DNA of 64,000 nt. Origin: Muricoccus nepalensis. Lineage in GTDB: Bacteria; Pseudomonadota; Alphaproteobacteria; Acetobacterales; Acetobacteraceae. The position numbers and the translations under genes are program-made. This document shows positions 3,253 to 63,949 of this stretch, one piece after another. Under the pieces are notes generated by a model. The model was given only the letters and a program-made list of their open reading frames with translations. It was not told the origin of the DNA and made no database searches. The stretch spans positions 186,001 through 250,000 of the forward strand of contig NZ_RCZP01000003.1 of NCBI RefSeq assembly GCF_006438825.1. The letters are read 5' to 3'. Positions within the stretch are counted from its first letter, which is position 1, and the number at the start of each line of letters is the position of its first letter.

Positions 3253-3286
3253 CGGCACCGGAAGCCCGCGCGGCAAACGCCGGGCG

Positions 3287-4493: not shown

Positions 4494-4536
4494 GGGCGTG
4501 AAAACCCCGTCAAACCCGGCGCCGGAACGTGTGACG
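4494..4536 (-). repeat. 43-bp element, copy A (possible promoter/operator)
   Basis: This copy matches the element at 6551-6593 at 32 of 43 positions with no gaps. Read leftward, both contain CGTyACACGTTyCG, then CCGGkTTTGAyG about 5 nt later, and both end in ACGCCC. Copy A lies 203-245 bp upstream of the BASS transporter start, oriented the same way as copy B is to its downstream gene. It is not part of any recognised coding sequence. A shared promoter or regulator site is the simplest reading, but no known sigma-factor consensus fits clearly. Confidence 0.5.
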
Positions 4537-4588
4537 CCCGCCGCGGCGTGCCGGCGCCGCCCCGGGTCCGGCGGGCGGGCCGCGCGCC

Positions 4589-5023: not shown

Positions 5024-5388
5024 CGCCTGTTCCCCTCGCTCCACCATCCGGCCCGTCGCCGCGGGATGGCCCGGGCGGCCGCGCCGGGAACGACCCTCCA
5101 CCGGCTTGGGGCGGAAGAGACCCCGAACGAGGTTGCCCCGTGCCGCCGCGCCCGGCCCGTGCCGAAGGTCACCCGCCGGGGAGCACCCAGGGCACTCCCC
5201 AAGGAAGGGCGGCGGCACGGGCCTCAGGGACGCAGCGGTCCGCGCGCCGCGGGCGTTACGAGCGCGACGGCGCAATCGAGGGCGGCCGCGCCGATCAAGG
5301 GCGCACCGGACCAGGCGGCCGCGCGCCGGACGGGGGAGGCGCCGGGCGCTTCGGCTCCGGGGGATGGCCCGCCGTCGGCCGGCACCGC
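5024..5388. other. Intergenic, no gene seen
   Basis: This G+C-rich stretch carries no reading frame with convincing composition on either strand, no tRNA-like fold and no clear terminator. It may hold the promoter of the 144-aa gene to its left. Confidence 0.4.
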
Positions 5389-6021: not shown

Positions 6022-6455
6022 GGCGCGCCCTCCCGCGTCTTGGCCGGGCCCGACCGCCTCGGCCCGCCGCCGTGCCACGCCCGCGACCCGACGGGCGTCG
6101 ACAGGCCGGCCGTGCTCTCGCGGGGCGCGGGCCTCTCCGTCGCCGCCGTCCCGGCCGCGGGCGCGTCGCAGGCCGATCGCCTCTGCCGCTCCAGCGCCGC
6201 CAGCTCGTTCCCGGTGAGCGCGCCGGCGCGGTGCATGACGGCCAGGAACCGCGCGTAGGTCGCCGGGTCGAGCAGGGTCTCCACGCCCTCCAGCGAGCAC
6301 TCGCAGGCGCTCCCCGCGGCGCGGCAGAAGGCGACGACCTCCGTCGACGGATCCGGCGGCAGGCCGTCCGGCCCCGCCCCCAGCGCCGGCCGGCAGGCCG
6401 GCCACGACGAGAGACAGGCGGCGAGCCACGCGCCGGTCACCGACCTCCAGGACAC
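6018..6455 (-). CDS. Small secreted protein, hypothetical
   Basis: This is a 145-residue product with a Sec-type signal peptide (MSWRSVTGAWLAACLSSW, cleavage expected near ALGA-GPDG). A short conserved-looking domain follows with cysteines in VAFCRAAGSACECSLEGVE and helices TYARFLAVMHRAGALTG and ELAALERQRRSAC. The tail is low-complexity and Pro/Arg-rich. I do not recognise the family. Its stop overlaps the start of the next leftward gene, so the two form an operon. The 43-bp element copy B lies about 96 bp upstream and may be its promoter region. Confidence 0.55.
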   Translation of the reverse strand: MSWRSVTGAWLAACLSSWPACRPALGAGPDGLPPDPSTEVVAFCRAAGSACECSLEGVETLLDPATYARFLAVMHRAGALTGNELAALERQRRSACDAPAAGTAATERPAPRESTAGLSTPVGSRAWHGGGPRRSGPAKTREGAP

Positions 6456-6550
6456 GATCGCCCTCCTCCGCTGCGGGAATACGGCCTCGGCATCGCGCCG
6501 CCAGCCTGCCGCTGCGCGTCGCGACAGGCTGCACGCCGCGGGCGGAAAGG

Positions 6551-6593
6551 GGGCGTTAGAAGCGCATCAAAACCGGGCTCGAAACGTGTAACG
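6551..6593 (-). repeat. 43-bp element, copy B (possible promoter/operator)
   Basis: This is the second copy of the element at 4494-4536 (32/43 identical, ungapped). It lies 96-138 bp upstream of the secreted-protein gene on the left and about 145 bp upstream of the divergent BTAD regulator on the right. The conserved blocks are GGGCGT, TCAA, ACGTGT and the terminal ACG in plus-strand reading. The proximity to a DNA-binding regulator makes a shared operator plausible. Confidence 0.5.
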
Positions 6594-6738
6594 GGCCGGG
6601 CGGCACGCGCCGCGGAACGCCTTGGGCGGCGCATGCAAATGAGTTAATGCCGGCCGGCTCTCCAGCCCGCCAGATTGATCCGTGGCCCCTCCCCCGCGCG
6701 TCGACGGCGTGCGGGACGGGGCGGACGGAGGGCTTGCG

Positions 6739-8805: not shown

Positions 8806-10395
8806 TCAGGCCCAGCGGACGCCCCAGAAGGTCGGCAGCCCCGGCGGCACCCCGGCCAGCCCGCGCCGGTGCGCCGCCCGCGGGAGCACCGCCCCGATGG
8901 GAATGTAGGGCAGGTCCTCGAAGGCCTGCCGCTGCAGGGCGCGGGCAAGGCCGTCGCGCTCCCCCGGGCTCCCGGCCTCGAGCCAGGCGTCGCGCAGGGC
9001 CTCGATCCGCGGGCTCACCGGCCAGCCGATACGGCCCTCCCGCCCGTTCCCGCGGAGATAGGGGTGGACGGCGGGGTCCAGCATGTCGAGGCCGGAGAAC
9101 CAGGTGTGGACCACGTTCCAGCCCCCCTGCGCCGGCGGGTCCTGCCGCGCGAGGCGCCCGAAGGCGGTGGCCCAGTCGAGCGCCTGGACGTCGACCTCGA
9201 AGCCGACGCGCCGCAGCAGGTCGGCCCCGACCTCCGCCTGCGCCCGCAGGATCGGCACGTCCGTCGGCGCGATGAGCACCACCCGCGCCCCCGCGGCGCC
9301 GGCCCGCGCCAATGCACGGCGCGCCCCCTCGAGGTCGCGCGGGCCGAGCAGCACGTCCAGCCCCTCGTCGCTCGCGCCCAGCGCGCCCTCCGCGAAGAAG
9401 CCGACCTCGGTCCGTCCGCCCCCTGGGAAGTCGCCGGCGACCGCGGCGACGTAGTCGGCGGGCGAGACCGCCGGCAGCAGCGCGCGGCGCACCGCCGGGT
9501 CGTCGAAGGGCGGGTGCAGCTGGTTGAAGCGCAGCGCGCCGTGGAGGCCGAGCGCGCCGGGCGGGGTGACCGCCACGCGCGGGTCCCGCGCGAGGGAGGG
9601 CAGCAGGTCGAAGCCGGGATTCTCCCACCAGTCCACCTCGCCCGCGCGCAACGCCGCCGCCGCCGTGGCGGGGTCGGGCAGCACGTGCCACTCCACGCGG
9701 TCGACCTGGACGTGCTTGGGCCCGGCGGTGAGGCCCGCCCCGCCGCCCTCGCGAGGGAGATAGGCCTCGTTCCGCTCGTAGGCCACGCGCGCGCCGGCGA
9801 GGCGCTCGGCGGGCAGGAAGCGGAAGGGGCCGCTGCCCACCACCTCCGTCACCGGGCGGTGCGGATCGGCCCGGGCCAGGCGCTCCGGCATGATCGCGCA
9901 GACCGGCGAGCCCGGCTTGCCGAGCGCGTAAGTCAGCAGCGGGAAGGGACGCCGGAGCCGGATGCCGATGTCCCGGTCGTCGAGCGCCCCGATCTCCTCG
10001 GCCGCGGCGAGCAGCGCCCCTCCGAAGCCGTCGCGCGCGCCCCATCGGCGGAGGCTCGCCGCGGCGTCGCGCGCGAGCACCGGCTCGCCGTCGTGGAAGC
10101 GCAGGCCCTCGCGCAGGCGGATCGTCCAGCGAAGGCCGTCGGCGGACACCTCGTGCCCCTGGGCCATCTGCGGCTGGACCCGGTAATCCGCGTCCATGCC
10201 GTAGAGGGTGTCGTAGACCATCAGCGCGTGGTTGCGCGTGACGTAGGCGCCGGACCAGACCGGGTCCGTGACGCCGAGATCCGCGTGCGGCACGAAGCGC
10301 AGGACGCGCGCGCCCGCGCCGGCCGCAAGGCGCGGGGCGGCAAGGCCGAGGGCGAGCGCGGCGCGGCGCCCAAGGGCAGCGGAGGGGAGACGCAT
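8806..10395 (-). CDS. ABC transporter substrate-binding protein, family 5 (peptide/Ni type)
   Basis: This periplasmic binding protein has 529 residues. It begins MRLPSAALGRRAALALGLAA with an Ala-rich export signal and twin arginines, then RVLRFVPHADLGVTDPVWS and TLYGMDADYRVQPQMAQG. The block WTIRLREGLRFHDGEPV is the family-5 signature region. GGAG lies 6 nt before the ATG. No permease or ATPase gene is adjacent, so it is an orphan here; the ligand (peptide, opine, nickel or other) cannot be told. It converges on the BTAD regulator with 9 bp between stop codons. Confidence 0.87.
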   Translation of the reverse strand: MRLPSAALGRRAALALGLAAPRLAAGAGARVLRFVPHADLGVTDPVWSGAYVTRNHALMVYDTLYGMDADYRVQPQMAQGHEVSADGLRWTIRLREGLRFHDGEPVLARDAAASLRRWGARDGFGGALLAAAEEIGALDDRDIGIRLRRPFPLLTYALGKPGSPVCAIMPERLARADPHRPVTEVVGSGPFRFLPAERLAGARVAYERNEAYLPREGGGAGLTAGPKHVQVDRVEWHVLPDPATAAAALRAGEVDWWENPGFDLLPSLARDPRVAVTPPGALGLHGALRFNQLHPPFDDPAVRRALLPAVSPADYVAAVAGDFPGGGRTEVGFFAEGALGASDEGLDVLLGPRDLEGARRALARAGAAGARVVLIAPTDVPILRAQAEVGADLLRRVGFEVDVQALDWATAFGRLARQDPPAQGGWNVVHTWFSGLDMLDPAVHPYLRGNGREGRIGWPVSPRIEALRDAWLEAGSPGERDGLARALQRQAFEDLPYIPIGAVLPRAAHRRGLAGVPPGLPTFWGVRWA

Positions 10396-10738
10396 CGCGA
10401 GCTCCAGCAAGGACCGGCGGCGGGAGGATCGGCCTCCTGGCGGGCCTGCACCACCGGAAAGCGGGGCGGGCGCGGGCGGTGCGGCGCCTCTTCGGCGCGC
10501 GGGCCGGAACGCGCTGGCGGGTGCGCCGGTCCTGCGTGCCGCCGGGGCGCGCGGAGGGCAGCTGCGGCTAGCTGCCAGTCCTGGCCGCCCATGCCCGAGC
10601 CGACGCCGCTGATCGCGCACCCTCGACGATCACCGGCCGCCCGTCCTTCCGGTTCGTCATGCGAAGCCCGGTCGCGAGGGCAAGCCGCGTCTCCGTCGCC
10701 CGCGTCATGCCGCCGGTCGGCGCGCCGGCCACGGAAGG
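10396..10738. other. Intergenic, no confident gene
   Basis: The region lies upstream of the family-5 binding protein. A leftward frame crosses 10568-10882 but has weak third-position G+C compared with real genes here. I see nothing firm besides the expected promoter. Confidence 0.4.
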
Positions 10739-11056
10739 ATGCGCGAGCCGTTCGTCCGAAGCCTCGTCATCGGGCTGTTCGACAACCGGGAGGGCCTCGC
10801 CGGCTGGCACGATGACCACGCCGCCTTCGTCGAGACCATCTGGCGCCAGCGGCACCGGGCCGCCGCGCTCACGCAGCAGCATCTTGCGAGGATCAGCAGG
10901 ATCTTCGTCTCAGTCGCCCGCGCCGCCATCAGCGTGTGGCCAGCTGTGGCCCGGCCCGTCGCGGGACGGACGGGGATCAGCCCGCGGAACGGTCGAGCAG
11001 CACCCACAGCCGCGCGATGCGGCCACCCACGATCTCCGCCGCGTCCGCGCCGGTGA
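10739..11056 (+). CDS. Possible small hypothetical gene or gene remnant
   Basis: The first about 62 codons (MREPFVRSLVIGLFDNREG..., through IFVSV near 10920) have about 92% G/C third positions, like real genes of the window, and no stop. Beyond about 10930 the codon use degrades, and the frame runs over the 3' end of the convergent SnoaL-like gene, which is unusual. No ribosome site has good spacing (GGAAGG abuts the ATG). This fits either a decayed gene whose C-terminus was lost or a small real gene. The family is not recognised. Confidence 0.3.
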   Translation: MREPFVRSLVIGLFDNREGLAGWHDDHAAFVETIWRQRHRAAALTQQHLARISRIFVSVARAAISVWPAVARPVAGRTGISPRNGRAAPTAARCGHPRSPPRPRR

Positions 11057-51922: not shown

Positions 51923-51941
51923 ACGCTCCGGAGGAAGCGCC

Positions 51942-53267
51942 ATGCCCGTCACGTCCCCCCTCACCCGCCGCGGCGCGCTCGCCGCCGGCTTCGGCTCCGT
52001 CCTGCTCCCGGCGGGCCTCTCCGCGCAGGCGCCGGCGGCCAAGCCGTCCGAGCTGAAGATCGGCATCACGACCTTTCTCTCCGGCCCGGCCTCTGTCTTC
52101 GGCGTGCCCGGCCGCAACGCCGCGGAGATGCTGGCCGAGGAGATCAACCGCGAGGGCGGCATCGGCGGCGTGCCGATCCGCCTCTTCTTCGTGGACGAGG
52201 GCCCGGGCATCGACCACCTCGTCGGCGAGTTCCGCCGCCTCGTGCAGAACGAGAAGGTGGACGTGATGCTCGCCTCCATCTCCTCCGGCTCCTGCCTCGC
52301 CTGCACGCCGCTGGCCGAGGAGCTGCGGAAGGTGACGCTCCTCTGGGACTGCGGCACCCAGCGCATCTTCGAGGAGGGGTCCTACAAGTACGCCTTCCGC
52401 AGCCAGGCGAACTCGACGCCCGAGATGATGGCCCCGCTCCTCTACCTGCTGAAGCACAAGCCCGACTTCCGCTCGCTGGCCGTGGTGAACCAGGACTACG
52501 CCTGGGGGCGCGATTCCTGGGAGCTCTGGAAGGCCGCGATGGACGTCCTCAAGCCCGGCGTGCGCGTCGTGGCAGAGCTCTTCCCGCGCTTCGGCGCGAC
52601 AGACTTCTCGGCGGAGGTCACGCGCCTCCTCGCGCTGCGCCCGGACGTGGTGCTCAGCACGAGCTGGGGCGGCGACCTCGACACCTTCATCCGCCAGTCG
52701 GCGGAGCGGCGCCTCTTCGAGCGCTCGACCTTCGTCCTGCCGCTCGCGGAATCCTCGCTCGAGCGCGTCGGACGCCTGCTGCCGCCCGGGCACATCGTCG
52801 GCAGCCGCGGCGACCACTGGCACCAGCACCCGCGCCCGGCCGACCCGGCGGCGCTGCAGCGCTTCGTCGCCAACTACCGGCGCCGCTTCAACGCCTACCC
52901 GATCTACCCGACCTACCACATGGCCCAGGCCTTCAGCGCGCTCCGCGCCGCCTACGCGAAGGCGACCGCGGCGAACGGCGGCAACTGGCCGTCGGACGTG
53001 CAGCTCGCGGGCGCCTTCCCTGGGCTGGAGTTCGACAGCCCCACCGCGCGGCTGCGCATTCGCGAGGACGGCCAGGCGCTGGAGCCGCAGCTCATCGGCA
53101 CGACGGCGCAGGACGATCGCTTCCCCTTCCCGATCATGGACCGGATGGTGGTCTTCCCCCCCGAGACGATCATGCCCCCGGTCGGCCAGAAGAGCCTCGA
53201 CTGGATCCGCACGCTGACGGCCGACGCGGTGTCGCGCGTGCCGGACCCCGTCCGCCCGGCCGGCTGA
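51942..53267 (+). CDS. Branched-chain-type ABC substrate-binding protein
   Basis: The 441-residue periplasmic protein begins with a Tat/Sec signal (LTRRGALAAGFGSVLLPAGL). It has the type-I binding fold: KIGITTFLSGPASVFGVPG, MLAEEINREGGIGGVPIRL, VNQDYAWGRDSWELW and YAFRSQANSTPEM. Related proteins bind branched-chain amino acids, amides or aromatic acids; the ligand here is not clear. It heads a complete importer operon. GGAGGAAG lies 5 nt before ATG 51942. Confidence 0.9.
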   Translation: MPVTSPLTRRGALAAGFGSVLLPAGLSAQAPAAKPSELKIGITTFLSGPASVFGVPGRNAAEMLAEEINREGGIGGVPIRLFFVDEGPGIDHLVGEFRRLVQNEKVDVMLASISSGSCLACTPLAEELRKVTLLWDCGTQRIFEEGSYKYAFRSQANSTPEMMAPLLYLLKHKPDFRSLAVVNQDYAWGRDSWELWKAAMDVLKPGVRVVAELFPRFGATDFSAEVTRLLALRPDVVLSTSWGGDLDTFIRQSAERRLFERSTFVLPLAESSLERVGRLLPPGHIVGSRGDHWHQHPRPADPAALQRFVANYRRRFNAYPIYPTYHMAQAFSALRAAYAKATAANGGNWPSDVQLAGAFPGLEFDSPTARLRIREDGQALEPQLIGTTAQDDRFPFPIMDRMVVFPPETIMPPVGQKSLDWIRTLTADAVSRVPDPVRPAG

Positions 53268-53279
53268 CGGGCGCGGCGC

Positions 53280-54215
53280 ATGGGGGAATGGTTCGAGCAG
53301 AACGGCGCACTCCTCGGCCTCGCGCTGCTGGACGGCATCGCGAGCGCCGCGCTGATCTTCATGGTGGCCGTCGGGCTCAACCTCGTCTTCGGGGTGCTGC
53401 GGGTGCTGAACGTCGCGCATGGCAGCTTCTTCGCCATCGGCGGCTACATGGCCGCGTCCATCGGGCTCCTGATGACGGCGGTCGGGCTGCCGCCCTGGGC
53501 CTCCTTCGCGGCCCTCCTCCTGGCCGCGGTCGTGACCGGTGCGATCCTCGGCCCCCTCATCGAGCGCTTCCTGCTCCGCCGCGTCTACGCCGAGGAGTCC
53601 GTCCTGCAGCTCCTCGTCACCTTCGCGCTCTTCATGATCCTGGAGGACCTGCAGAAGATCGTCTGGGGCGTGCAGCCCGTCTCCTTCGGCGGCCCCGTCG
53701 CCCTGATGGGCACGGTGGACGTCCCCTTCGCCGGCGACGTGATCCCCTACAACGCCTACCAGGTGATCCTCCTGCCGGTCGTCGCCCTCCTCACCCTCGG
53801 GGGCCTCGCCTGGTTCCTGCGGCGCACGCTGGCGGGGCGCGTCATCGTCGCCGTCACCCTCGACCGCGAGGCGGCGACGGCGATGGGGATCGACGCCGGG
53901 CGGGTCTTCCTGCTGACCTTCACCTTCGGGGCCGTGCTGGCGGCGCTGGGCGGCGCGCTCTCCGCGCCCACCGCCTCCCTCGTCCCGGGCGTCGGCGCCT
54001 CCACCATCGTGCTCTCCTTCGCCGTGGTCGCGACCGCCGGGCTGGGGCAGATCGAGGGCGCGGCGCTGACGGCCCTGATGATCGGCATCGGCCGCTCCGT
54101 CGCCGTCACCTTCGAGCCGGAGCTGGAGGTGGTGGTCCCCTACCTCATCATGGTCGCCGTGCTGCTGCTCCGCCCGCAGGGCCTCTTCGGGGTGCCGGAG
54201 ACGCGGCGGATATGA
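53280..54215 (+). CDS. livH: ABC importer permease, LivH type
   Basis: The 311-residue integral membrane protein has about eight helices (ALIFMVAVGLNLVFGVLRVL; YMAASIGLLMTAVGLP; AGRVFLLTFTFGAVLAALGGAL). It overlaps the second permease by 4 nt (ATGA). It forms the transmembrane pair with LivM. Confidence 0.9.
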   Translation: MGEWFEQNGALLGLALLDGIASAALIFMVAVGLNLVFGVLRVLNVAHGSFFAIGGYMAASIGLLMTAVGLPPWASFAALLLAAVVTGAILGPLIERFLLRRVYAEESVLQLLVTFALFMILEDLQKIVWGVQPVSFGGPVALMGTVDVPFAGDVIPYNAYQVILLPVVALLTLGGLAWFLRRTLAGRVIVAVTLDREAATAMGIDAGRVFLLTFTFGAVLAALGGALSAPTASLVPGVGASTIVLSFAVVATAGLGQIEGAALTALMIGIGRSVAVTFEPELEVVVPYLIMVAVLLLRPQGLFGVPETRRI

Positions 54216-55159
54216 GGGGCCTGCGCCGGGCCGAGATCCTCATCGCCCTCCTCCTCGCCGCCGCCATCGTCCTCGCCGCCTTCTCGACGCCCTGGCTGCG
54301 CTTCGTGCTCACCGTCGCGCTCGCCAAGGGCGTCGCCGTGCTCGGCATCCTGCTGCTGCTGCGCGCCGGGCAGGTGAGCTTCGGGCACGCGCTCTACGTC
54401 GCGCTCGGCGCCTACGCCGTCGCCTTCCTCGCGCCCCGCGTGCCCGAGGCGGCGCTCCTCCTCCCCCTCGCCGCCGTCGTCGCGGGGCTGGTGGGCACGG
54501 TGGTCGGCCTCTTCGTGTCGCGCTACCGCGAGATCTTCTTCGGCATGCTGAACCTTGCGCTCAGCATGGTCTTCTACTCCGTGCTGGAGAAGCTCTACCA
54601 CATCACCCGCGGCACGGACGGCATCCGCGTGCCCGCGATCACGGTGCTCGGCCAGCCGCTGGAGGGATCGTCCTACGACTGGGCGGTCTTCGCCATGGCG
54701 CTCGGCCTCGCCCTCCTCTTCGGCCTTCTGGCCCGGGCCTACCTCGCCTCCCCCGTCGGGCAGGCCCTGGCCGCGATCAAGACGCGCGAGACCCGGCTCG
54801 ACTTCATGGGCGTCTCGCCGCGCCGCGTCCTCCTCTCGGCCTATGTGCTCTCCGCGGTCATGGCGGGCTGCGCGGGGGCGGTGATCGCGATGGCGACGCG
54901 CCACGTCACGCCGCTGCTCGCCTACTGGACCGCCTCCGGCGAGCTCGTCTTCATCGCCGTGCTCGGCGGCGCGGGCGGCGTGCTCGGCCCCTTCCTCGGC
55001 GCCGCGACCTTCGAGCTGGTGCGCGTCTACGCCGCGGCCACCGTCGCCGACGCCTGGGGGATGATCCTCGGCGCCGTGCTGCTGCTCGTCATCCTCTTCG
55101 CCCGCGGCGGCCTCTGGGGCATCGTCGCGGCGCGCCTCGGCCGGCGGCGCGCGGCGTGA
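54212..55159 (+). CDS. livM: ABC importer permease, LivM type
   Basis: The 315-residue membrane protein has LRAGQVSFGHALYVALGAYA and the permease-ATPase contact loop ETRLDFMGVSPRRVLLSAYV. ATG 54212 overlaps the LivH stop. Its own stop overlaps the GTG of the LivG-type ATPase gene. Confidence 0.9.
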   Translation: MRGLRRAEILIALLLAAAIVLAAFSTPWLRFVLTVALAKGVAVLGILLLLRAGQVSFGHALYVALGAYAVAFLAPRVPEAALLLPLAAVVAGLVGTVVGLFVSRYREIFFGMLNLALSMVFYSVLEKLYHITRGTDGIRVPAITVLGQPLEGSSYDWAVFAMALGLALLFGLLARAYLASPVGQALAAIKTRETRLDFMGVSPRRVLLSAYVLSAVMAGCAGAVIAMATRHVTPLLAYWTASGELVFIAVLGGAGGVLGPFLGAATFELVRVYAAATVADAWGMILGAVLLLVILFARGGLWGIVAARLGRRRAA

Positions 55160-55938
55160 GCGCCCTTCTCGAGGCGCGCGGCCTTCGCCTGGCCTTCGGC
55201 GGCGTGAAGGCCGCCGACGGTATCGACCTCGCGGTGACGGCGGGCGAGTTCCTGGCGATCATCGGCCCGAACGGCGCCGGCAAGACCACCTTCATCAACA
55301 TGGCAACCGGCTACCTGCGCTCGCAGGGCGGCCAGATCCTCTTCGACGGCGCGGAGATCACCGGCCGCTCCCCGCGGGAGATCGTCCGCCGCGGCATCGC
55401 TCGCTCCTTCCAGCTCCCGCAGCTCTTCTCCGAGCACACGGTGGAGGAGAACGCGGCGTTGGCCATCGCCGCGCGGGACGGGATCTGGTCCCCCTTCCGC
55501 CCCCTGCTGCGCCCCGCCTGGCGGGAGGAGGCGCGCGACCTGCTGGACCGCTTCGGCCTGCTGCCCGCCGCCGCGCTCCGCGCCGACGCGCTGAACGAGG
55601 GCACGCGCAAGCTGGCCGACATCGCCATGGCCGTGGCGCTCCGCCCGCGCGTGCTGCTGATGGACGAACCGACGAGCGGCGTCGCCGCCTCCGAGAAGAT
55701 GGCGGTGGTCGAGACGCTGGCGCGCGTCCTGCGGTCCTCCGGCGTGACGGCCGTCTTCGTCGAGCACGACATGGACGTGGTGGAGCGCTTCGCCGACCGC
55801 GTCGCCGTCTGGGCGCAGGGCCGCATCGCGGCGCTCGGCTCCCCCGCGGCGGTCCTCGCGGACCCGGAGGTGCAGCGGAACGTGATCGGGATCGCGCGGC
55901 CCGCCCGCGCCACGGGCGGGAGGGCCGCCGATGCTTGA
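55156..55938 (+). CDS. livG: ABC importer ATPase, LivG type, variant signature
   Basis: The 260-residue ATPase has Walker A GPNGAGKTT (about residue 38), Walker B VLLMDEPTS and switch His in VFVEHDMDVV. The ABC signature reads LNEGTRKLADIA rather than LSGGQ/LSYGQ. The D-loop is SGVAASE. It overlaps LivM (GTGA) and LivF by 8 nt. Confidence 0.9.
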   Translation: MSALLEARGLRLAFGGVKAADGIDLAVTAGEFLAIIGPNGAGKTTFINMATGYLRSQGGQILFDGAEITGRSPREIVRRGIARSFQLPQLFSEHTVEENAALAIAARDGIWSPFRPLLRPAWREEARDLLDRFGLLPAAALRADALNEGTRKLADIAMAVALRPRVLLMDEPTSGVAASEKMAVVETLARVLRSSGVTAVFVEHDMDVVERFADRVAVWAQGRIAALGSPAAVLADPEVQRNVIGIARPARATGGRAADA

Positions 55939-56605
55939 GCTCCGCGCCGTCGCCGCCGACATCGCGGGCGCGCCGGTGCTGCGCGGCGTCTCGATGCATC
56001 TTCCCCCCGGCGGGCTCGTCGCGCTCATCGGGCGCAACGGCGCCGGCAAGACCACCACCCTGCGTGCGATCATGGGCCTGCTGCCGCTGCGCGGCGGCCA
56101 GGTGCTGCTCGGGGGCGAGGAGGTGACGGGCGTGCCCGCGCATCACCGCGCCCGCCTCGGCGTCGGCTACGCGCCGGAGGAGCGGCGCCTCTTCGGCCCT
56201 TTCTCCGTGCGCCAGAACCTCCTCCTGCCGGCCGAGGTGCTGCGGCTTCCCGCGGCGGAGACCGCCCGCCGCCTGGAGGCCGTCTTCACCTTCCTGCCCG
56301 AATTGGCGACGCTGGCGGACCGCCGCGCGGCCGGGCTCTCCGGCGGGCAGGGCAAGATGGTCGCGCTCGGCCGCGCGCTCATCGTCGGCACGCGCGCGGT
56401 GCTGCTGGACGAGCCCTTTCAGGGCCTCGCGCCGGCGCTCGCGCAGCGCTACGCGGACGCGCTCCGCGGCTTGCACGCGGCCTTCCCGCGCGTCGCGCTG
56501 CTGGTGACCGAGAGCAACCCGCAGCTTCTCGAGCCGCTGGTGGACACGACCTACGTCATCGAGCGCGGCGAAATTCTGACGGCGGACGCCGCCACCGCGG
56601 CCTAA
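55931..56605 (+). CDS. livF: ABC importer ATPase, LivF type
   Basis: The 224-residue ATPase has Walker A GRNGAGKTTT, a canonical signature LSGGQGKMVALGRAL, Walker B AVLLDEPF and Q-loop MGLLPLRGGQV. The H-loop position reads VTESNPQLLE, with Glu-Ser where LivF often has an acidic residue or Gln/His. Last subunit of the importer. It pairs with LivG. Confidence 0.9.
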   Translation: MLELRAVAADIAGAPVLRGVSMHLPPGGLVALIGRNGAGKTTTLRAIMGLLPLRGGQVLLGGEEVTGVPAHHRARLGVGYAPEERRLFGPFSVRQNLLLPAEVLRLPAAETARRLEAVFTFLPELATLADRRAAGLSGGQGKMVALGRALIVGTRAVLLDEPFQGLAPALAQRYADALRGLHAAFPRVALLVTESNPQLLEPLVDTTYVIERGEILTADAATAA

Positions 56606-56777
56606 CGGGCGGGACAGCGGCGAGGCCAGGCGTTACGCTCGGCCGGCACGCCGCCGAAGGAGGTGAACGAGGCTCTCAGACTGCCGGCTGGGCCGCGGCA
56701 CGCCGCCCCGCCGGAGCGACCCCGGGCCGCAGGACCGGGATCAGCAAGAAGAAACAAGCACGATGGAGGAAAAGAGC

Positions 56778-57773
56778 ATGAACGGGCTTTCGAGGCGCGC
56801 CCTCTTGGGCGCCACCGCCGGGTCGGCCATCGCCGGGCTGGCGCTGCCCGGGGCAGAGGCCGCCGCCCCCTTCCGCAACGACCTGCCCCCGGCCTGGCAC
56901 CGGTTCCGGATCGGCGAGTTCGAGGCGACGGTCCTCTCCGACGGCGCGCTGCCGCTCGGTGACCCCACCGACTCCTTCCTCGGGGTCGAGGCTGGCGAGA
57001 TCCGCAAGATGCTCACCGACAACTTCCTGCCGCCGGGTGCGGCGACTCTCGCGCAGAACGCGCTCGTGCTGAACACCGGCCGCCAGCTCGTGCTCTTCGA
57101 CACGGGCATGGGCGACAGCATGGGCGAGGCCAGCCGCATGTTCGGCCCGACCACCGGCCAGCTCCTGCGGAACATGCGCGCCGCCGGCATCGACCCCGCC
57201 CAGATCGACATGGTGATCGCGACCCACGCCCATTGCGACCACATCTGGGCGCTGGTGGACGCGAACGGCAACCGCAACTTCCCGAACGCCCAGGTCGCGA
57301 TCGCCGAGGCCGACCTGCGCTTCTGGACGGACGAAGCGAACAAGCGCGGCCCGGACTTCATGACGGCCTTCATCGACGGCGCGCGCAAGAACCTGGCTCC
57401 CTATCGCGACCGCATGGTGATGGTGCGCGACGGCCAGGAAGTGATCCCCGGCGTGACCGCGGTCGCCGCCCCCGGCCACACGGTGGGCCACCACTGCTAC
57501 ATCATCAGCTCCGGCGACCGGATCGTCATGAACACCGGCGACCTCGCGCACCACCAGCTGCTGCTGCTGCGCCGGCCCGGGCTGGAGTTCTCCTTCGACA
57601 CGGACCCGAAGCTCTCGGCGGTAACGAGGACCCGCCTGCTGGACCGCATCGCGCGGGACCGCTACGCGGTCCTCTCCTACCACTTCCCCTGGCCGGGCCT
57701 CGGTCACGTGCTGCGGGAGGGCGACGGCTACGGCTGGCTTCCGGCGACGATCAACACCACGCTCGTCGAGTAG
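56778..57773 (+). CDS. Exported metallo-beta-lactamase-fold hydrolase
   Basis: The 331-residue protein starts at ATG 56778, which has GGAGG 8 nt upstream; an ATG five codons earlier is poorer. A Tat signal (LSRRALLGATAGSAIAGLAL) is followed by the zinc motif THAHCDH, APGHTVGHH, the bridging Asp in MNTGDLAHH and a late His in LSYHFPWPG. This is a complete two-metal site. Members hydrolyse lactones, thioesters or sulfur compounds; the substrate here is open. It is 172 bp after livF and probably transcribed separately. Confidence 0.87.
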   Translation: MNGLSRRALLGATAGSAIAGLALPGAEAAAPFRNDLPPAWHRFRIGEFEATVLSDGALPLGDPTDSFLGVEAGEIRKMLTDNFLPPGAATLAQNALVLNTGRQLVLFDTGMGDSMGEASRMFGPTTGQLLRNMRAAGIDPAQIDMVIATHAHCDHIWALVDANGNRNFPNAQVAIAEADLRFWTDEANKRGPDFMTAFIDGARKNLAPYRDRMVMVRDGQEVIPGVTAVAAPGHTVGHHCYIISSGDRIVMNTGDLAHHQLLLLRRPGLEFSFDTDPKLSAVTRTRLLDRIARDRYAVLSYHFPWPGLGHVLREGDGYGWLPATINTTLVE

Positions 57774-57814: not shown

Positions 57815-58549
57815 TCACCCCACCATCGTCAGCGTGAAGCGGGACAGCGAGCGGATATGGGCCTGCACCGCCCGCCGCGCCGCCCGGGCATCGCCGTCGA
57901 TCAGGGCGTCCAGGATCGCGATGTGCTCGCTCGAGTCCGGCCCCACCCGGTCCGACAGCCAGGCGATCTCGAAGAGCCGCGTCGTGATCCGCAGGCTCTC
58001 GATCAGCCGGGCCATTACCTTGTTCCCGCAGTGCTCAGCGAGGACGCGGTGCACGGCGTCGTCCGAGGTCCAGTGCGCGTCCGTGTGGGCGGGCGCGGCG
58101 TTCAGCTCCACCGCCTCGGCGCGCAGCGCGCGCAGCCGCGGGACCGGGATCCGCCCCGCGGCTAGGGCCGCCGCCTCCGGCTCGAGGATCTCCCGAACCT
58201 TGAGGCTCTGCAGGTACTCCGCCAGCTCGACATGGCGGACGACGAAGGACCGGTTGGGCGCCTTCACGACCAGCCCCTCGCCTTCCAGCCGCTGTAGGGC
58301 CTCGCGCAACGGCGTGCGGGAGACGCCGAGCGTCTCGGCGAGGCGCTGCTCCACGATCGTCTCGCCGCCCTTCAGGCGCCGGTCGCGGATCATCTCCGAC
58401 ACCGCCCGGTAGGCGAGGCCGGAGAGGTTCAGCGAGCCCCCGCCCTCCCCGCCGCGGGCGCCGGCGGGGGGCACGGGCCCCTTCCCCTCCCGCCCGGCCT
58501 CGGTCTGCGCTCTGCGTCCGGGCAAGGATCCCTCCTGGGTCGCGGCCAT
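57815..58549 (-). CDS. GntR-family (FCD/FadR subfamily) regulator
   Basis: The 244-residue protein has the GntR HTH LAYRAVSEMIRDRRLKGGE, then LAETLGVSRTPLREALQRLEGEGLV. The C-terminal FCD domain contains LAEYLQSLKVREILEPEAAALA and HRVLAEHCGNKVMARLI. It is preceded by a Gly-rich unstructured leader of about 40 residues. It lies 11 nt after the permease gene and so is in the same leftward operon. Its likely operator is the GTATAC site at 61045. Confidence 0.88.
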   Translation of the reverse strand: MAATQEGSLPGRRAQTEAGREGKGPVPPAGARGGEGGGSLNLSGLAYRAVSEMIRDRRLKGGETIVEQRLAETLGVSRTPLREALQRLEGEGLVVKAPNRSFVVRHVELAEYLQSLKVREILEPEAAALAAGRIPVPRLRALRAEAVELNAAPAHTDAHWTSDDAVHRVLAEHCGNKVMARLIESLRITTRLFEIAWLSDRVGPDSSEHIAILDALIDGDARAARRAVQAHIRSLSRFTLTMVG

Positions 58550-59251: not shown

Positions 59252-60085
59252 TCAGGGGGTCGGGCCGGTCACGTCGAAGGCCGCGTCCCAGCCGCGCACG
59301 CCGTAGCGCTCGAGCAGGGCGGCGTAGCTGCCGTCGGCCCGCATCTCCTCGAGCACCTTCGCCACCGCCTCCGCCAGCGGGCGCGAGCGCAGGCCGAAGG
59401 CGATCGGCGTGGGGAAGAGCCCGCTGATGGGGCGCGCGAAGTCCCCGCGCGTCTCGTACTCCTTGGCCGTGCTGTCGATCGACACCGCGGCGTCCACCTG
59501 CCCCACCCGCAGCGACTGGAAGGAGACGGCGAAGTTGTCGAAGGCGCGCACCGTGGGCGCGCGGCCGCCGGCGGCCGTCACCTGCCGCAGGATGTCCTGG
59601 GAGCGGTTGAACTCGAAGCCCCCCTGCTCCACCCCGATCGAGAGGCCCGCCAGGTCCTTCACCTCGCGGATGTTGCGGGGGTTGCCGCGCGGCACGGAGA
59701 TCGAGATCGCCTGCTGCTCGTAGCGCACGAGCTGCATCAGCCGCGCGCGCTCCTCGGTGAAGAACATCCCGGTGTTGATCATGTCCCAGCGCCGCGCGGC
59801 CAGGCCCGGGATCATGGCGGCGAACTCCACCCGCACGTTCTCCACCTTCAGGCAAAGCCGCTTCGCGATCTCGGCGCCGAGCTCCACCCGCATCCCGCGC
59901 AGCGCGCCCGAGGAATCGACGAACTGCATCGGCGGCAGCGTCGGGTTCGTCGAGAGCGTCAGCGTTCCCGGCGTCACCAGCTCGGAATTGGCCACGCGCG
60001 GCGCGCAGCCGGCGGGCGCCTGGGCCAGGGCGGGCAGGGCAAAGGCGCAGAGCGCGACGCCGGCGAGAGCGGGGAGGAGGCGCAT
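59252..60085 (-). CDS. Polar-amino-acid ABC substrate-binding protein
   Basis: The 277-residue periplasmic protein has a Sec signal (LPALAGVALCAFALPALAQ). Family-3 features: GTLTLSTNPTLPPMQFVDS, GMRVELGAEIAKRL, WDMINTGMFFTEERA and LAGLSIGVEQGG. It lies 31 nt after the DapA-family gene. In this context hydroxyproline or a related amino acid is the plausible ligand. Confidence 0.9.
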   Translation of the reverse strand: MRLLPALAGVALCAFALPALAQAPAGCAPRVANSELVTPGTLTLSTNPTLPPMQFVDSSGALRGMRVELGAEIAKRLCLKVENVRVEFAAMIPGLAARRWDMINTGMFFTEERARLMQLVRYEQQAISISVPRGNPRNIREVKDLAGLSIGVEQGGFEFNRSQDILRQVTAAGGRAPTVRAFDNFAVSFQSLRVGQVDAAVSIDSTAKEYETRGDFARPISGLFPTPIAFGLRSRPLAEAVAKVLEEMRADGSYAALLERYGVRGWDAAFDVTGPTP

Positions 60086-60116
60086 GGCAGGGGTCCTTGT
60101 CAGGGGGAAGGAGGGG

Positions 60117-61007
60117 TCAGGCGGCGAGGAGGCCGAGGCCGCCCAGCACGTCGCGCAGGGCCGCGTTGTCGGCTTCCGGCAGCGGCAGGCGCGGCGGGCG
60201 CGGCGGGCCCATGTCCATCCCGGCCATCCGCAGCGCCGCCTTGGTGCCGGAGACGTAGCGGGGCCCGCCGACGAAGGGCAGCAGCGGCGCGAGCTTGCGG
60301 TAGAGCGGCAGCGCCGTCTCGCGGTCGCCGGCGGCCGCGGCCTCGAACATCGCGGAGGACAGCGCGGGCGCCACGTTGGAGCAGACCGCGACCCAGCCCA
60401 CGGCACCCAGGAAGGCGCTCTCGTAGCCGAGCACGCCCGCGAAGACCGTCATGCGGTCGCCGCAGAGCGCGAGGATGTCGCGCACCCGCGTCGGGTCGAG
60501 CGTGGATTCCTTGATGTAGCGGCAGTTGTCGATGCGCGAGAGGCGCGCGACGGTCGCCGGCAGCAGGTCCACGTTGGCGGTGGCGGGGTTGTTGTAGACC
60601 ATCACCGGGATGCCGATCGCCTCGCCGATGCGGCGGTAGTGCTCGAAGAGCTCGTCCTCCGTCGGCACGGAGTAGAAGGGCGGGATCACCATCACCCCGT
60701 CCGCGCCCATCCGCTCCGCCTCGCACGAGAGCGCCACGGCCTCCCGCGTGTCCTCGCAGCCCGTGCCGACGATCACCGGCACCCGCCCGGCGCTCGCGCG
60801 CAGCACGGTCTCGACCACCGCCGCCCGCTCCTCGCGGGAGACGCTCAGGAACTCCCCCGTCGAGCCCAGCGGGATCAGGCCGCGCACGCCGTTGGCGATC
60901 TGATGCTCGACCAGCCGCGCCAGCGCCGCCAGGTCCGGGGCGGCGCCGTCGGCGGTGAAGGGGGTGACGAGGACGGTATGGGTGCCGCGGAAGGGCTCGG
61001 CGGTCAT
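60117..61007 (-). CDS. DapA/NAL-superfamily lyase (candidate pyrroline-hydroxycarboxylate deaminase)
   Basis: The 296-residue (beta/alpha)8 protein forms a Schiff base with K166 (RYIKEST), has the partner Tyr Y138 (VMVYNNP) and the substrate loop PLGSTGEFL. No lysine-biosynthesis gene is near. Members next to HcnABC-type dehydrogenases and GntR regulators act as 1-pyrroline-4-hydroxy-2-carboxylate deaminases in hydroxyproline breakdown, which fits this context. ATG 61007 is preferred; a longer start at 61037 would run into the operator region. Confidence 0.87.
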   Translation of the reverse strand: MTAEPFRGTHTVLVTPFTADGAAPDLAALARLVEHQIANGVRGLIPLGSTGEFLSVSREERAAVVETVLRASAGRVPVIVGTGCEDTREAVALSCEAERMGADGVMVIPPFYSVPTEDELFEHYRRIGEAIGIPVMVYNNPATANVDLLPATVARLSRIDNCRYIKESTLDPTRVRDILALCGDRMTVFAGVLGYESAFLGAVGWVAVCSNVAPALSSAMFEAAAAGDRETALPLYRKLAPLLPFVGGPRYVSGTKAALRMAGMDMGPPRPPRLPLPEADNAALRDVLGGLGLLAA

Positions 61008-61028
61008 GCGCGCAGGACTCCAGGAGAC

Positions 61029-61050
61029 GTATTCCATACCGAGTGTATAC
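61029..61050. promoter_or_regulatory. Probable GntR (FCD) operator between divergent genes
   Basis: Two dyads lie side by side: GTATTCCATAC (61029-61039, a GTAT-N3-ATAC inverted repeat) and GTGTATAC (61043-61050), which continues GA and matches eight of ten positions of the FCD-type consensus TTGTATACAA. Seventeen bases after the GTATAC is TATATC (61068-61073), a candidate -10 for the rightward gene, so a bound repressor would cover its -35. The leftward start codon is only 22 bp away. Confidence 0.55.
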
Positions 61051-61108
61051 GATCCGGGCCGCCTGCCTATATCCTGACTGCCCTGCCCCGAAGGCCCCGC
61101 CCCCGCCC

Positions 61109-63949
61109 ATGCGCCTCGACACGCCCGGATTCAGCCCCCTCGGCCCCGCCCTGACCTTCCGCTTCGACGGCGAGCCCGTCACGGCGCTGCCCGGCGAGAC
61201 CGTCGGCGCCGCCCTTGCCGCCAGCGGCCGCCTCGCGCTCCGCCGCACCGCGGCCGGCGCGCCGCGCGGCCTCTACTGCGGGATGGGCGCCTGCTGGGAC
61301 TGCGCCGTGACAATCGACGGCCGCGCCGGGGAGCGCGCCTGCCAGGTGAAGGCCGCGCCGGGCCTGGACGTCCGCTCGGCGCCCCCGGGCACCCCCACCC
61401 CCTTCGGGTTCGACGCGGCGCCGCCCGCCGAGCCGGAGGAGCACCGCCCGGACCTGCTGGTCGTCGGCGCCGGTCCCGCCGGCCTCTCCACCGCCATCGA
61501 GGCCGCCCGCGCCGGCGCCGTCGTCACCGTGCTCGACGAGCGCGACGCGGCGGGGGGCCAGTACCTCAAGCCCCTGGCCGCCCACGCGGCCGACCGCCCC
61601 GACGCCCAGCACCGCCGCGGCGACGCGCTGCGCGCCGAGGCCCGCGCGGCGGGCGTGCGGCTGGAGACCGGCGCCCTCGTCTGGGGCGCCTTCGCGCGGG
61701 ACGAGGTGGCGGCGCTGCTGCGGGGGCGGGCCGCCCTCTTCCGCCCCCACCAGCTCCTCCTCGCCCCCGGCGCGCACGAGCGGCCCGTGGCGCTGCCCGG
61801 CTGGACGCTGCCCGGCGTGATGACCACGGGCGCCCTGCAGACCCTCGCCCGCGCGGGCCGCGTCTCCCCCGCCCCGGTGGTGGTGGTGGCCGGCAACGGC
61901 CCGCTGAACCTCCAGCTCGCCTGCGAGCTGGTGGAGGGAGGCGCGCGCGTGGCGGCCGTGGTCGAGGCCGCGCCCCGCCCCGGCCCCCGCGCCTGGCGCG
62001 ACGCGCTCCGGATGGGCCTCGCCGCGCCGGACCTCGCCTGGGACGGCACCCGCTACCTCCTCCGCCTCCGCCGCGCGGGGGTGCCGGTGCTCTGGGGCGC
62101 GCGGGTCGCGGCCTGCGAGGGCGAGGGGCGGCTGGAGCGCGTCCGCGTCGCCGCGCCCGGCGGCGAGCGGGTCCTCGAGGCGGGCGCCCTGGCCCTGCAC
62201 CACGGCTTCGTGCCGGAGACGGGCCTCGCCCGCGCGCTCGGCGCCGCGCACCGGGCGGGGCCGTCGGGCGCGCTGGAGACGGTCACCGACGAGGAGGGCC
62301 GCACCGACGTCCCGGGCGTGGCCGCGATCGGCGACGGCGCCGCGGCGGGCGGGGCGCGCGCCGCCCTCGCCATGGGGCGGATCGCCGGCCGGGCGGCGGC
62401 GCGGGCGCTCGGCCTCGACGCCCCCGCCCGCGCCGCGGACCGCGCCGCGCTGGACCGCGCCCGGGCCTTCCAGGCCGCGCTCTGGCGGCTCTTCCGCGCG
62501 CCCCCGCCCGCCGCCCCGCCCGACGACGTGATCGCCTGCCGCTGCGAGGAGGTGACGGCCGGCGCCGTCCGCGCCGCCGGGGGAACGGCCGTCGCCGCGC
62601 GCCGCGCCACGCGGGCGGGCATGGGCGCCTGCGGCGGCCGCTTCTGCGCCTCCACCCTGCGCGACATCCTCGGCCCGGCGCCCGGAGAGGCCGGCTTCGC
62701 CGCGCCCCGCGCGCCGCTCCGCCCGGTCCCCGCCGCCGCGATCTGGCACCCGCGCCCCGAGGCCGCGCGCGAGCGCCTCTACGACGCGCCCGCCCTCCCC
62801 CGCCGCTGGACGACCGCCTCCCCGGCCCCGGTGCCGCCGGACTGCGACGTGCTGGTCGTGGGCGGGGGCGTCGTCGGGCTCTCCACCGCGCTGTTCCTCG
62901 CGCGGGAGGGCCGCGACGTGCTGGTGGCCGAGCGCGGCGAGCCCGGCCTGGGCGCCTCCACCGCCAACGCCGGCAGCCTGCACGTCCAGCTCCTGGCCTA
63001 CGCCTTCGGGGACGTCGGCGACCCCGGGCCGCTGGCCGAGGCGCTCGCCCTCGCGCCGCCGGCCGTCGCCCTCTGGCGCGAGCTCGCGGCCGCGGCCGGG
63101 GAGACGCTCTCGATCCGCACCGAGGGCGGGCTGATCCTCGCCGACACGCCCGACGCCCTCGACTGGCTGCGCCGCAAGACCGCCTTCGAGCGCGCCCGCG
63201 GCATCGAGGCCGAGGTGATCGGCCCCGCCGAGCTCCGCGACCTCGCCCCCGCCCTGCGCCCCGGCCTCGCCGGCGCCTCCTGGTGCCCGGCCGAGGGGCA
63301 GATGGACCCGCTGCGGGGAACCGCGGCCCTGCTCCGCCTCGCGCGGGCGGCGGGGGCACGGGTGGCGCCGGGGCTCGAGGTCCTGTCCCTCGCCCGGGAC
63401 GGCGCGGGCTACCGCGTCGGCGTGCCCGGCGGCGCCTTCCGCGCGGGGCGGATCGTCAACGCCGCTGGGCCCCACGCCATGGCGGTGGCGCAAATGCTGG
63501 GGGAGGCCCTGCCGATGCGCCTCGTGGTGCAGCAGGTGATCGCCACCAGCCCGGGGCCGCCCTCGCTCCGGCCGCTCGTGCAATGGGCGCGCCGGCACCT
63601 TTCCCTGAAGCAGACGGACTCCGGGCAGCTTCTCATCGGCGGCGGCTGGCCCGGCCGCCTCGACGAGGACGGCGCGGCGCGGCTCATCCGGGAGGCGGTC
63701 GAGGGCAACCTCTGGACCGCGGGGCAGGCCCTGCCGATGCTGTCGGGCCTCCGGGTGCTGCGCGCCTGGGCCTCGCCCAACATCCACCTCGACCGCGGGC
63801 CGCTGCTGGGCGAGAGCGCCCGCAACCCCGGCCTGTTCCACGCCATCACCTCGAACGGCTGGACCCTGGGCCCGCTGGTCGGGCGCCTGGTCGCGGAGGC
63901 CATCCTCGGACGGGGCGGCCCGCCGGCGGCCTTCGCGCCGGGACGCTAG
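61109..63949 (+). CDS. Three-in-one D-hydroxyproline-dehydrogenase/HcnABC-type fusion
   Basis: The 946-residue protein has four modules. (1) About residues 1-100: HcnA-like 2Fe-2S domain with CGMGACWDC and a fourth Cys (ERACQ). (2) About 110-460: FAD/NAD oxidoreductase (LLVVGAGPAGLSTAIEAA). (3) About 475-535: BFD-like 2Fe-2S domain, CRCEEVT ... GACGGRFC. (4) About 579-940: DAO-type FAD domain (VLVVGGGVVGLSTALFLA; GASTANAGSL). In known systems (HcnABC, OoxAB, LhpBEF) these are separate chains. The likely role is oxidation of a D-amino acid such as cis-4-hydroxy-D-proline. ATG 61109 begins directly at the 2Fe-2S domain. Confidence 0.9.
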   Translation: MRLDTPGFSPLGPALTFRFDGEPVTALPGETVGAALAASGRLALRRTAAGAPRGLYCGMGACWDCAVTIDGRAGERACQVKAAPGLDVRSAPPGTPTPFGFDAAPPAEPEEHRPDLLVVGAGPAGLSTAIEAARAGAVVTVLDERDAAGGQYLKPLAAHAADRPDAQHRRGDALRAEARAAGVRLETGALVWGAFARDEVAALLRGRAALFRPHQLLLAPGAHERPVALPGWTLPGVMTTGALQTLARAGRVSPAPVVVVAGNGPLNLQLACELVEGGARVAAVVEAAPRPGPRAWRDALRMGLAAPDLAWDGTRYLLRLRRAGVPVLWGARVAACEGEGRLERVRVAAPGGERVLEAGALALHHGFVPETGLARALGAAHRAGPSGALETVTDEEGRTDVPGVAAIGDGAAAGGARAALAMGRIAGRAAARALGLDAPARAADRAALDRARAFQAALWRLFRAPPPAAPPDDVIACRCEEVTAGAVRAAGGTAVAARRATRAGMGACGGRFCASTLRDILGPAPGEAGFAAPRAPLRPVPAAAIWHPRPEAARERLYDAPALPRRWTTASPAPVPPDCDVLVVGGGVVGLSTALFLAREGRDVLVAERGEPGLGASTANAGSLHVQLLAYAFGDVGDPGPLAEALALAPPAVALWRELAAAAGETLSIRTEGGLILADTPDALDWLRRKTAFERARGIEAEVIGPAELRDLAPALRPGLAGASWCPAEGQMDPLRGTAALLRLARAAGARVAPGLEVLSLARDGAGYRVGVPGGAFRAGRIVNAAGPHAMAVAQMLGEALPMRLVVQQVIATSPGPPSLRPLVQWARRHLSLKQTDSGQLLIGGGWPGRLDEDGAARLIREAVEGNLWTAGQALPMLSGLRVLRAWASPNIHLDRGPLLGESARNPGLFHAITSNGWTLGPLVGRLVAEAILGRGGPPAAFAPGR

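What the first reader, a model, noticed from the sequence alone, without database searches (positions are those of the whole stretch)
61109..63949. Single polypeptide combining HcnA-, HcnB- and HcnC-like chains
The gene runs without a stop through a 2Fe-2S domain, an FAD/NAD oxidoreductase with a BFD-like 2Fe-2S tail, and a separate DAO-type FAD domain. In the characterised HcnABC, opine oxidase and D-hydroxyproline dehydrogenase families these are two or three separate proteins. All cofactor motifs look intact, so it may be a self-contained electron chain (two FAD, two Fe-S) in one protein. Residues about 540-575 would be the junction.
Basis: partly seen in the sequence, partly recalled or inferred. 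Interest (0 to 1): 0.72.

Follow-up and report, generated by a model that had tools for sequence, protein, structure and literature searches.

The report
Three-subunit amine dehydrogenase in one chain
One gene encodes as a single protein what related bacteria make as three separate subunits of a flavin and iron-sulphur enzyme thought to strip electrons from amino-acid-like compounds; the fusion looks real and inherited in many bacteria, but its substrate is unknown and the hydroxyproline first guessed is not supported.

Summary
Window 61109-63949 encodes one 946-aa chain with Fer2_4, Pyr_redox_2, BFD-like and DAO parts: the gamma, alpha and beta subunits of the OpnDH / D-HypDH / L-proline dehydrogenase superfamily, in that order. 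An open frame alone proves little here (81% GC; two other frames are stop-free). The fusion is nonetheless well supported: 20 loci carry it full length in one frame; in the window's family 33 of 130 genomes match, 28 full length, 5 cut by contig ends, none split; the junction is under purifying selection and has invariant residues. Trees give one origin; the nearest relatives mostly have gamma-alpha fused and beta separate.

Hydroxyproline as substrate is not supported: the gene sits with its own kind of DHDPS-family enzyme, an amino-acid ABC importer and often a dihydropyrimidinase; no hydroxyproline epimerase was found beside it. I read it as a single-chain variant of a known enzyme kind in a catabolic pathway I found undescribed.

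The parts
61109..63949 (+). whole fusion gene, gamma-alpha-beta in one frame, 946 aa (upstream in-frame GTG at 61043 is an alternative start)
   Evidence: alignment of 19 orthologues
61148..61378 (+). gamma-like Fer2_4 [2Fe-2S] domain, residues 14-90; cysteines C57, C62, C65, C78 (CX4CX2CX12C)
   Evidence: Pfam 75 bits; cysteines invariant in 19 of 19; spacing
61451..62356 (+). alpha-like Pyr_redox_2 FAD domain, residues 115-416, with GxGxxG at 120-125
   Evidence: Pfam 103 bits; G120, G122, G125 invariant
62537..62671 (+). BFD-like [2Fe-2S] segment, residues 477-521; C477, C479, C508, C513 (CXCX28CX4C)
   Evidence: Pfam 23.4 bits, under the 26-bit cut-off; cysteines invariant in 19 of 19; relatives have CXCX27-34CX4C
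62684..62842 (+). junction alpha-to-beta, residues about 526-578; weakly modelled in part but with invariant P536, P539, P541, E551
   Evidence: pLDDT under 50 at 524-531, 549-557, 559-570; purifying selection
62846..63898 (+). beta-like DAO FAD domain, residues 580-930, with G585-x-G587-x-x-G590 and the FMN motif R885-x-W887
60117..61037 (-). divergent DHDPS/NAL-superfamily enzyme (conserved Lys in YIKES and Tyr in YNNP; their Schiff-base role is recalled), probable next enzyme of the pathway
   Evidence: Pfam 219 bits; alignment; such a gene in 15 of 22 fused loci; tree
59252..60085 (-). amino-acid-type ABC solute-binding protein (start chosen by eye inside the ORF 59252-60406)
   Evidence: 333 bits to the annotated ABC substrate-binding protein of L029
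58561..59250 (-). amino-acid ABC transporter permease
   Evidence: Pfam BPD_transp_1 88 bits; 293 bits to the L029 permease
57815..58546 (-). GntR/FCD regulator of the cluster (start approximate)
   Evidence: Pfam FCD and GntR; GntR genes also lie in the L029, L062, L063, L064 clusters

Best explanation
A natural single-chain version of the alpha-beta-gamma flavin dehydrogenases of amino-acid-like amines. An ABC importer of the amino-acid type brings in a small D- or N-substituted (secondary or cyclic) amino acid. The C-terminal DAO domain, with FAD, oxidises its C-N bond to an imine. The electrons go to an FMN held between the DAO and Pyr_redox parts (Arg-X-Trp motif), then by the [2Fe-2S] and/or FAD sites of the N-terminal two-thirds to a respiratory acceptor rather than to oxygen. 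The resulting imine or 2-oxo acid is handled by the DHDPS-family enzyme encoded next door; a dihydropyrimidinase opens a ring somewhere in the route in many of the hosts. Shown here by sequence: the fusion, its conservation, its single origin, the motifs and the gene neighbourhood. Inferred: cofactor binding, electron path, acceptor, order of the steps. Substrate unknown.
For: Domain content; the two halves match the two partner chains of one solved complex, L-proline dehydrogenase 1y56_A and 1y56_B (Foldseek TM 0.79 and 0.83 by target length), and of sarcosine oxidase 1vrq_A/B. Eight Fe-S cysteines, both GxGxxG and RxW invariant in 19 of 19. One frame in 20 loci; 33 of 130 family genomes positive at 1e-100, 28 full length, 5 cut by contig ends, 0 split. 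Purifying selection across the junction. Fused proteins form one clade (beta 100/99, alpha 86/73), next to proteins with gamma-alpha fused and beta separate. DHDPS-family gene in 15 and dihydropyrimidinase in 14 of 22 loci, one or the other in 19 of 22. Biochemistry of the split enzyme: PMC4575208.
Against: No expression or protein data. The BFD segment is below the Pfam cut-off in this protein, and its cysteine spacing (X28; 27-34 in the relatives read here) differs from the X15-20 printed in PMC4575208. The characterised enzyme showed only one [2Fe-2S] per unit, so the second cluster may not form. Alpha-tree support for one origin is moderate (86/73). A GTG at residue 575 could serve as an internal start, though I see no ribosome site before it. 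The window itself has no dihydropyrimidinase near the fused gene; a homologue lies on another contig. Two contig-cut loci (L052, L059) show neither partner on the downstream side that is present.
Confidence: 0.65

Rival explanations
1. [quoted passage not shown]
For: Same superfamily as heteromeric D-HypDH; a DHDPS-family partner and transporters belong to that pathway (PMC4575208; passages of PMC4113996). An aldehyde dehydrogenase lies near the fused gene in L057 (Pfam) and, by similarity, in the stretches of L073 and L096.
Against: No PF05544 gene beside the fused gene in 11 of 11 genomes; none over the cut-off in G018, G023, G025, G163. Contig breaks leave linkage open in some drafts (in G031 the epimerase is at a contig end). 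The fused-gene DHDPS proteins score 334-570 bits to the window's, the epimerase-linked or recalled hyp-region ones 60-118. A dihydropyrimidinase has no place in that pathway as I know it.
Confidence: 0.12
2. It is an opine-type dehydrogenase (octopine, nopaline or a similar N-carboxyalkyl amino acid) in one chain.
For: Opine dehydrogenases share the three parts and the FMN motif, and the B. thailandensis genes run gamma-alpha-beta as the fusion does (PMC4575208). A gamma-alpha-fused relative with its beta gene lies on a Ti plasmid (L067).
Against: The two-beta clusters that resemble B. japonicum Odh in gene order (L035, L046, L069, own-genome L009) fall outside the fused clade in the beta and alpha trees. 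The opine catabolism described in PMC4575208 (parts read) names no DHDPS-family or hydantoinase enzyme.
Confidence: 0.2
3. The long frame is an accident of 81% GC DNA: alpha and beta are translated separately from an internal start.
For: High GC makes stop-free frames common; two other frames of this gene have no stop. GTG at residue 575.
Against: Junction under purifying selection in its own frame, invariant junction residues, open also at 58-68% GC (L063, L073, L056, L032), no split copy among 33 family genomes.
Confidence: 0.05

Closest known systems
Flavin-containing opine dehydrogenase OdhABC (P. putida, B. japonicum; PMC4575208)
   Same: gamma Fer2, alpha with FAD and second cysteine motif, beta DAO with Arg-X-Trp FMN motif; ABC transporter genes nearby
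   Different: three separate chains in an alpha4beta4gamma4 complex; here one chain, with DHDPS-family and often dihydropyrimidinase genes as neighbours
Archaeal L-proline dehydrogenase PDH1 (1y56)
   Same: the two halves match its two chains in sequence and fold; the first ~120 residues of the L-ProDH alpha subunit correspond to gamma (PMC4575208 figure legend)
   Different: beta is a separate chain
Heterotetrameric sarcosine oxidase SoxA/SoxB (1vrq, 2gag)
   Same: alpha chain matches the N-terminal half, beta chain the DAO half; FMN between subunits (recalled)
   Different: no GCV_T domain found here; TIGR01372 110 bits against a 1164 cut-off; beta fused
Gamma-alpha-beta split operon of Pantoea sp. 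At-9b plasmid pPAT9B04
   Same: same three parts in the same order, followed by a DHDPS-family gene and hydA, with an amino-acid ABC importer
   Different: three genes; its alpha and beta fall outside the fused clade, its DHDPS is distant

Membership tests
Heteromeric flavin amine dehydrogenases (OpnDH / D-HypDH / L-ProDH superfamily) | Fer2 part with CX4CX2CX11-12C | tested here: met
   C57, C62, C65, C78, X12; invariant in 19 of 19
Heteromeric flavin amine dehydrogenases (OpnDH / D-HypDH / L-ProDH superfamily) | two ADP-binding GxGxxG motifs in alpha and beta parts | tested here: met
   G120/122/125 and G585/587/590 invariant
Heteromeric flavin amine dehydrogenases (OpnDH / D-HypDH / L-ProDH superfamily) | second Cys motif CXCX15-20CX4C in alpha | tested here: inconclusive
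   four cysteines invariant, but spacing X28 here and X27-34 in the relatives read here, not 15-20 as printed
Heteromeric flavin amine dehydrogenases (OpnDH / D-HypDH / L-ProDH superfamily) | Arg-X-Trp FMN motif in beta | tested here: met
   R885-A-W887, Arg and Trp invariant in 19 of 19
Heteromeric flavin amine dehydrogenases (OpnDH / D-HypDH / L-ProDH superfamily) | separate alpha, beta (and gamma) chains | tested here: not met
   single frame
Heteromeric flavin amine dehydrogenases (OpnDH / D-HypDH / L-ProDH superfamily) | dye-linked dehydrogenase activity, 2 FAD + FMN + [2Fe-2S] | not testable with these tools
   needs purified protein
D-hydroxyproline dehydrogenase pathway | gene beside hydroxyproline epimerase (PF05544) | tested here: not met
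   0 of 11 genomes; some are drafts whose contig ends limit the test
D-hydroxyproline dehydrogenase pathway | DHDPS-family partner of the epimerase-linked type | tested here: inconclusive
   distant from the L097, L100, L101 proteins (support for the grouping only 58); those are deaminases by neighbourhood or recalled position only
Sarcosine oxidase SoxAB | GCV_T folate domain in SoxA; TIGR01372 and TIGR01373 over cut-off | tested here: not met
   no GCV_T among the Pfam matches; 110 of 1164 and 71 of 529 bits
HcnABC hydrogen cyanide synthase | glycine-specific, HcnA/B/C sequence group | not tested
   no Hcn reference sequence was at hand; no Hcn model among the NCBIfam matches at 1e-8, but I did not check that the library holds one

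The most novel reading that the evidence does not exclude
The fused gene is the core of an undescribed catabolic pathway, spread horizontally among soil and plant bacteria, in which a one-chain, three-flavin, one- or two-cluster dehydrogenase acts with its own DHDPS-family lyase and a dihydropyrimidinase on a cyclic or ureido amino-acid-like compound. The route gamma|alpha|beta to gamma-alpha|beta to gamma-alpha-beta can be read off living lineages, and Pantoea pairs the unfused form with the same kinds of partner.
Probability: 0.5. Interest if true: 0.58.

Novelty: new variant of a known kind. Interest (0 to 1): 0.45.

Why it matters
The characterised relatives are hard to handle because three subunits, tightly bound to the membrane, must assemble in a 1:1:1 ratio (PMC4575208). 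A natural one-chain version would fix that ratio, would be a simpler object for mapping the FAD-FMN-FeS electron path, and gives a worked example of stepwise subunit fusion. Its conserved neighbourhood points to a catabolic route that the records opened here label only with generic names (FAD-dependent oxidoreductase, 4-hydroxy-tetrahydrodipicolinate synthase, dihydropyrimidinase).

Tried and rejected
Open frame as proof of fusion: rejected as too weak at 81% GC; replaced by selection, conservation and census. Hydroxyproline: tested through PF05544 and DHDPS proteins, not supported. Phages: no match at 1e-10. The probe was meant to span the junction, but by its coordinates it covers only the start of the DAO part, so that call counts DAO relatives: 66 of 200 genomes match, only G219 (204 bits) and the own genome (143 bits) stand out, the next has 78 bits. 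Alignment A3 misplaced the beta rows; A2, in which about the first tenth of the beta rows is misplaced, was used for the model. The VIA-align list shows mainly the DAO part; the alpha part is supported by Foldseek rows and by sequence. Rows with glycine oxidase and DMGDH are fold matches only. No second structure job was run for the alpha part alone.

Literature: ten searches; the papers listed in nine of them (two found none) show no title or abstract start about a three-in-one fusion. Searches listed only part of what they found (25 of 253, 20 of 147, 25 of 96, 15 of 53, 8 of 39), and the library holds only open-licence papers. One search (3NA8) gave one paper, not opened. PMC4575208: abstract, introduction, parts 3 and 4 of 6, and passages; PMC4113996: passages; all others: listing only. 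Of the 93 plasmid records, 12 were opened and two more had been opened.

Rows dropped before counts: second copies of the same gene (overlapping loci) in the trees; rows with under 80% of the domain, so L033 and L066 are missing from the alpha tree; L047_6540 and L065_1170 (long branches) from the beta tree; L058 from the DHDPS tree (under 180 residues aligned). L059 was labelled unfused and relabelled as a contig-cut fused copy.
Full report
OBSERVATION. The gene at 61109-63949 (+) is one open frame of 946 codons plus stop. Pfam finds Fer2_4 (14-90), Pyr_redox_2 (115-416), a BFD-like segment (477-521, 23.4 bits, cut-off 26) and DAO (580-930); in two orthologues the BFD segment passes the cut-off. 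A search of the own genome with this protein found it once, plus two matches on contig C43. There lies a split set (DAO, Fer2, Pyr_redox, then a second DAO), an order like OdhB1-C-A-B2 of B. japonicum (PMC4575208).

IS THE FUSION REAL? At 81% GC an open frame means little: frame 2 and one reverse frame of the gene are also free of stops. Three tests speak for it. First, architecture. Nineteen distinct loci, this one included, carry all three parts in one frame with an alpha-beta linker of 33-71 residues, and so does L096. Two more loci are cut by contig ends (L033, L059). In the window's family 33 of 130 genomes are positive at 1e-100: 28 full length in one frame (G027 as two matches in one frame), 5 (G023, G393, G415, G431, G469) stopped by contig ends, none split by a stop. 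In a class-wide draw 6 of 142 genomes match at 1e-60, and 2 of 142 (own and G163) have the fusion. Among the 14 other genomes of the same genus searched, only G013 matches at 1e-60, so the gene is patchy. Second, selection: dN/dS over the junction codons is 0.052/0.583 in the Variovorax pair and 0.198/1.045 in the Agrobacterium-Rhizobium pair; the Azospirillum pair has 0 non-synonymous and 3 synonymous changes there. Third, the junction holds residues invariant in 19 of 19 (P536, P539, P541, E551). A GTG at residue 575 has, to my eye, no ribosome site before it.

ANATOMY. In the 19-protein alignment the four Fer2 cysteines (57, 62, 65, 78), the four BFD cysteines (477, 479, 508, 513), both GxGxxG sets and R885-x-W887 are invariant (the set includes near-copies such as L029/L064). 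PMC4575208 gives Arg-X-Trp as the putative FMN site of the beta subunit, and concluded 2 FAD, 1 FMN and one [2Fe-2S] per alpha-beta-gamma unit (about 7.5 iron per mole) even though both cysteine motifs are conserved there. So the prediction for the fused chain is two FAD, one FMN and one or two clusters. The printed spacing of the second motif (X15-20) fits none of the alpha parts in which I found it (X27-34). The AlphaFold model (40-row alignment, mean pLDDT 81, pTM 0.82) has mostly confident domains; among its weak stretches are residues 93-106 between Fer2 and Pyr_redox and parts of 524-570 at the junction. Foldseek matches it to both chains of L-proline dehydrogenase 1y56 and of sarcosine oxidase 1vrq. 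By sequence, none of the 14 solved chains found at 1e-10 covers both halves in its best stretch.

EVOLUTION. In trees of the beta and alpha parts the fused proteins form one clade (21 rows, one of them contig-cut; beta 100/99 of 54 rows, alpha 86/73 of 48 rows). Nearest to it stand proteins in which gamma and alpha are one chain and beta is separate (Roseicitreum L065, Antarctobacter L066, Agrobacterium leguminum L067; also a gamma-alpha chain of genome G114, whose beta was not looked for). Further out lie Embleya L072 (gamma-alpha fused) and Bradyrhizobium L068 (all three separate). The order of these branches is not firm. In L065 the gamma-alpha gene precedes a beta gene with a 14-base overlap, though that beta is a long branch. 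The simplest history is gamma|alpha|beta, then gamma-alpha|beta, then gamma-alpha-beta. The copy in G013, same genus as the window, groups with rhizobial copies, which points to transfer between lineages.

NEIGHBOURHOOD. In 22 loci (20 full-length, 2 contig-cut) the fetched stretch holds a DHDPS-family gene in 15, dihydropyrimidinase (hydA) in 14, one or the other in 19. The remaining three (L015, L052, L059) have their upstream side cut by a contig end; L052 and L059 do have their downstream side and show neither there. Amino-acid ABC transporter genes and GntR regulators are also common, DUF3830 in five. In the window: DHDPS-family 60117-61037, solute-binding protein, permease and GntR, all divergent from the fused gene. 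The window lacks hydA nearby, but its genome has a 55% identical one elsewhere. The split operon of Pantoea sp. At-9b has gamma, alpha, beta, DHDPS-family and hydA in a row, though its proteins fall outside the fused groups.

SUBSTRATE. In 11 fused-gene genomes searched for PF05544, every match lies on another contig or, in G013, far away on the same one (2.8 Mb for the strong match); 4 of 11 have no match over the cut-off. Several of these genomes are drafts, so contig breaks weaken the test. The DHDPS-family proteins beside fused genes score 334-570 bits to the window protein, those beside annotated hydroxyproline epimerases or in the recalled S. meliloti hyp region 60-118 bits; the tree keeps the fused-gene group together, but with weak support (58). 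Neither result excludes hydroxyproline as an in vitro substrate. The combination with a dihydropyrimidinase fits a cyclic or ureido amino-acid-like compound better, which is inference only. Gamma-glutamyltranspeptidase follows the fused gene in one locus by Pfam (L031) and in two more by similarity (L054, L059).

VERDICT. A conserved, single-origin, one-chain variant of a known enzyme kind, annotated in the four records seen only as 'FAD-dependent oxidoreductase'. No description was seen in the listings of nine literature searches of an open-licence library, so mention elsewhere is possible. Function at the level of a dye-linked amine dehydrogenase is likely; the substrate is open.

Noticed in passing
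L009 (own genome C43:9000-23000), ORFs at 4120-6156, 6083-6457, 6160-7833, 9133-10920: A split set beta-gamma-alpha plus a second beta, in gene order like the two-beta opine dehydrogenase cluster of B. japonicum, in the same genome as the fusion.
   Followed up: partly
L060 (G017:C102), 1850-4812 minus strand: An alpha gene whose last part lies in another frame while beta follows in the first frame; frame disruption or assembly error, left as it is.
   Followed up: partly
L070 6264-11484 (Pantoea sp. At-9b pPAT9B04): Unfused gamma-alpha-beta genes followed by DHDPS-family and dihydropyrimidinase genes: the split counterpart of the fused cluster in another lineage.
   Followed up: partly
L067 7950-10870 (Agrobacterium leguminum pTiCFBP4996): Beta gene plus gamma-alpha fused gene on a Ti plasmid, with saccharopine-dehydrogenase-like and RidA genes nearby; perhaps an opine catabolic set.
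   Followed up: no
window 51936-56605: A branched-chain-type ABC importer (Peripla_BP_6 binding protein by Pfam; two permeases and two ATPases by reading the ORFs), then a metallo-beta-lactamase-fold gene at 56763-57773, beside the amino-acid importer of the fused cluster.
   Followed up: no
window 61067-63841, minus strand, and frame 2 of the gene: Stop-free shadow frames over nearly the whole gene (924 aa on the minus strand), an effect of 81% GC that could mislead gene callers.
   Followed up: yes
L031 4750-6396, L054 9042-10613, L059 2416-5652: Gamma-glutamyltranspeptidase-like gene right after the fused gene in three loci (Pfam on the first, similarity for the others).
   Followed up: partly
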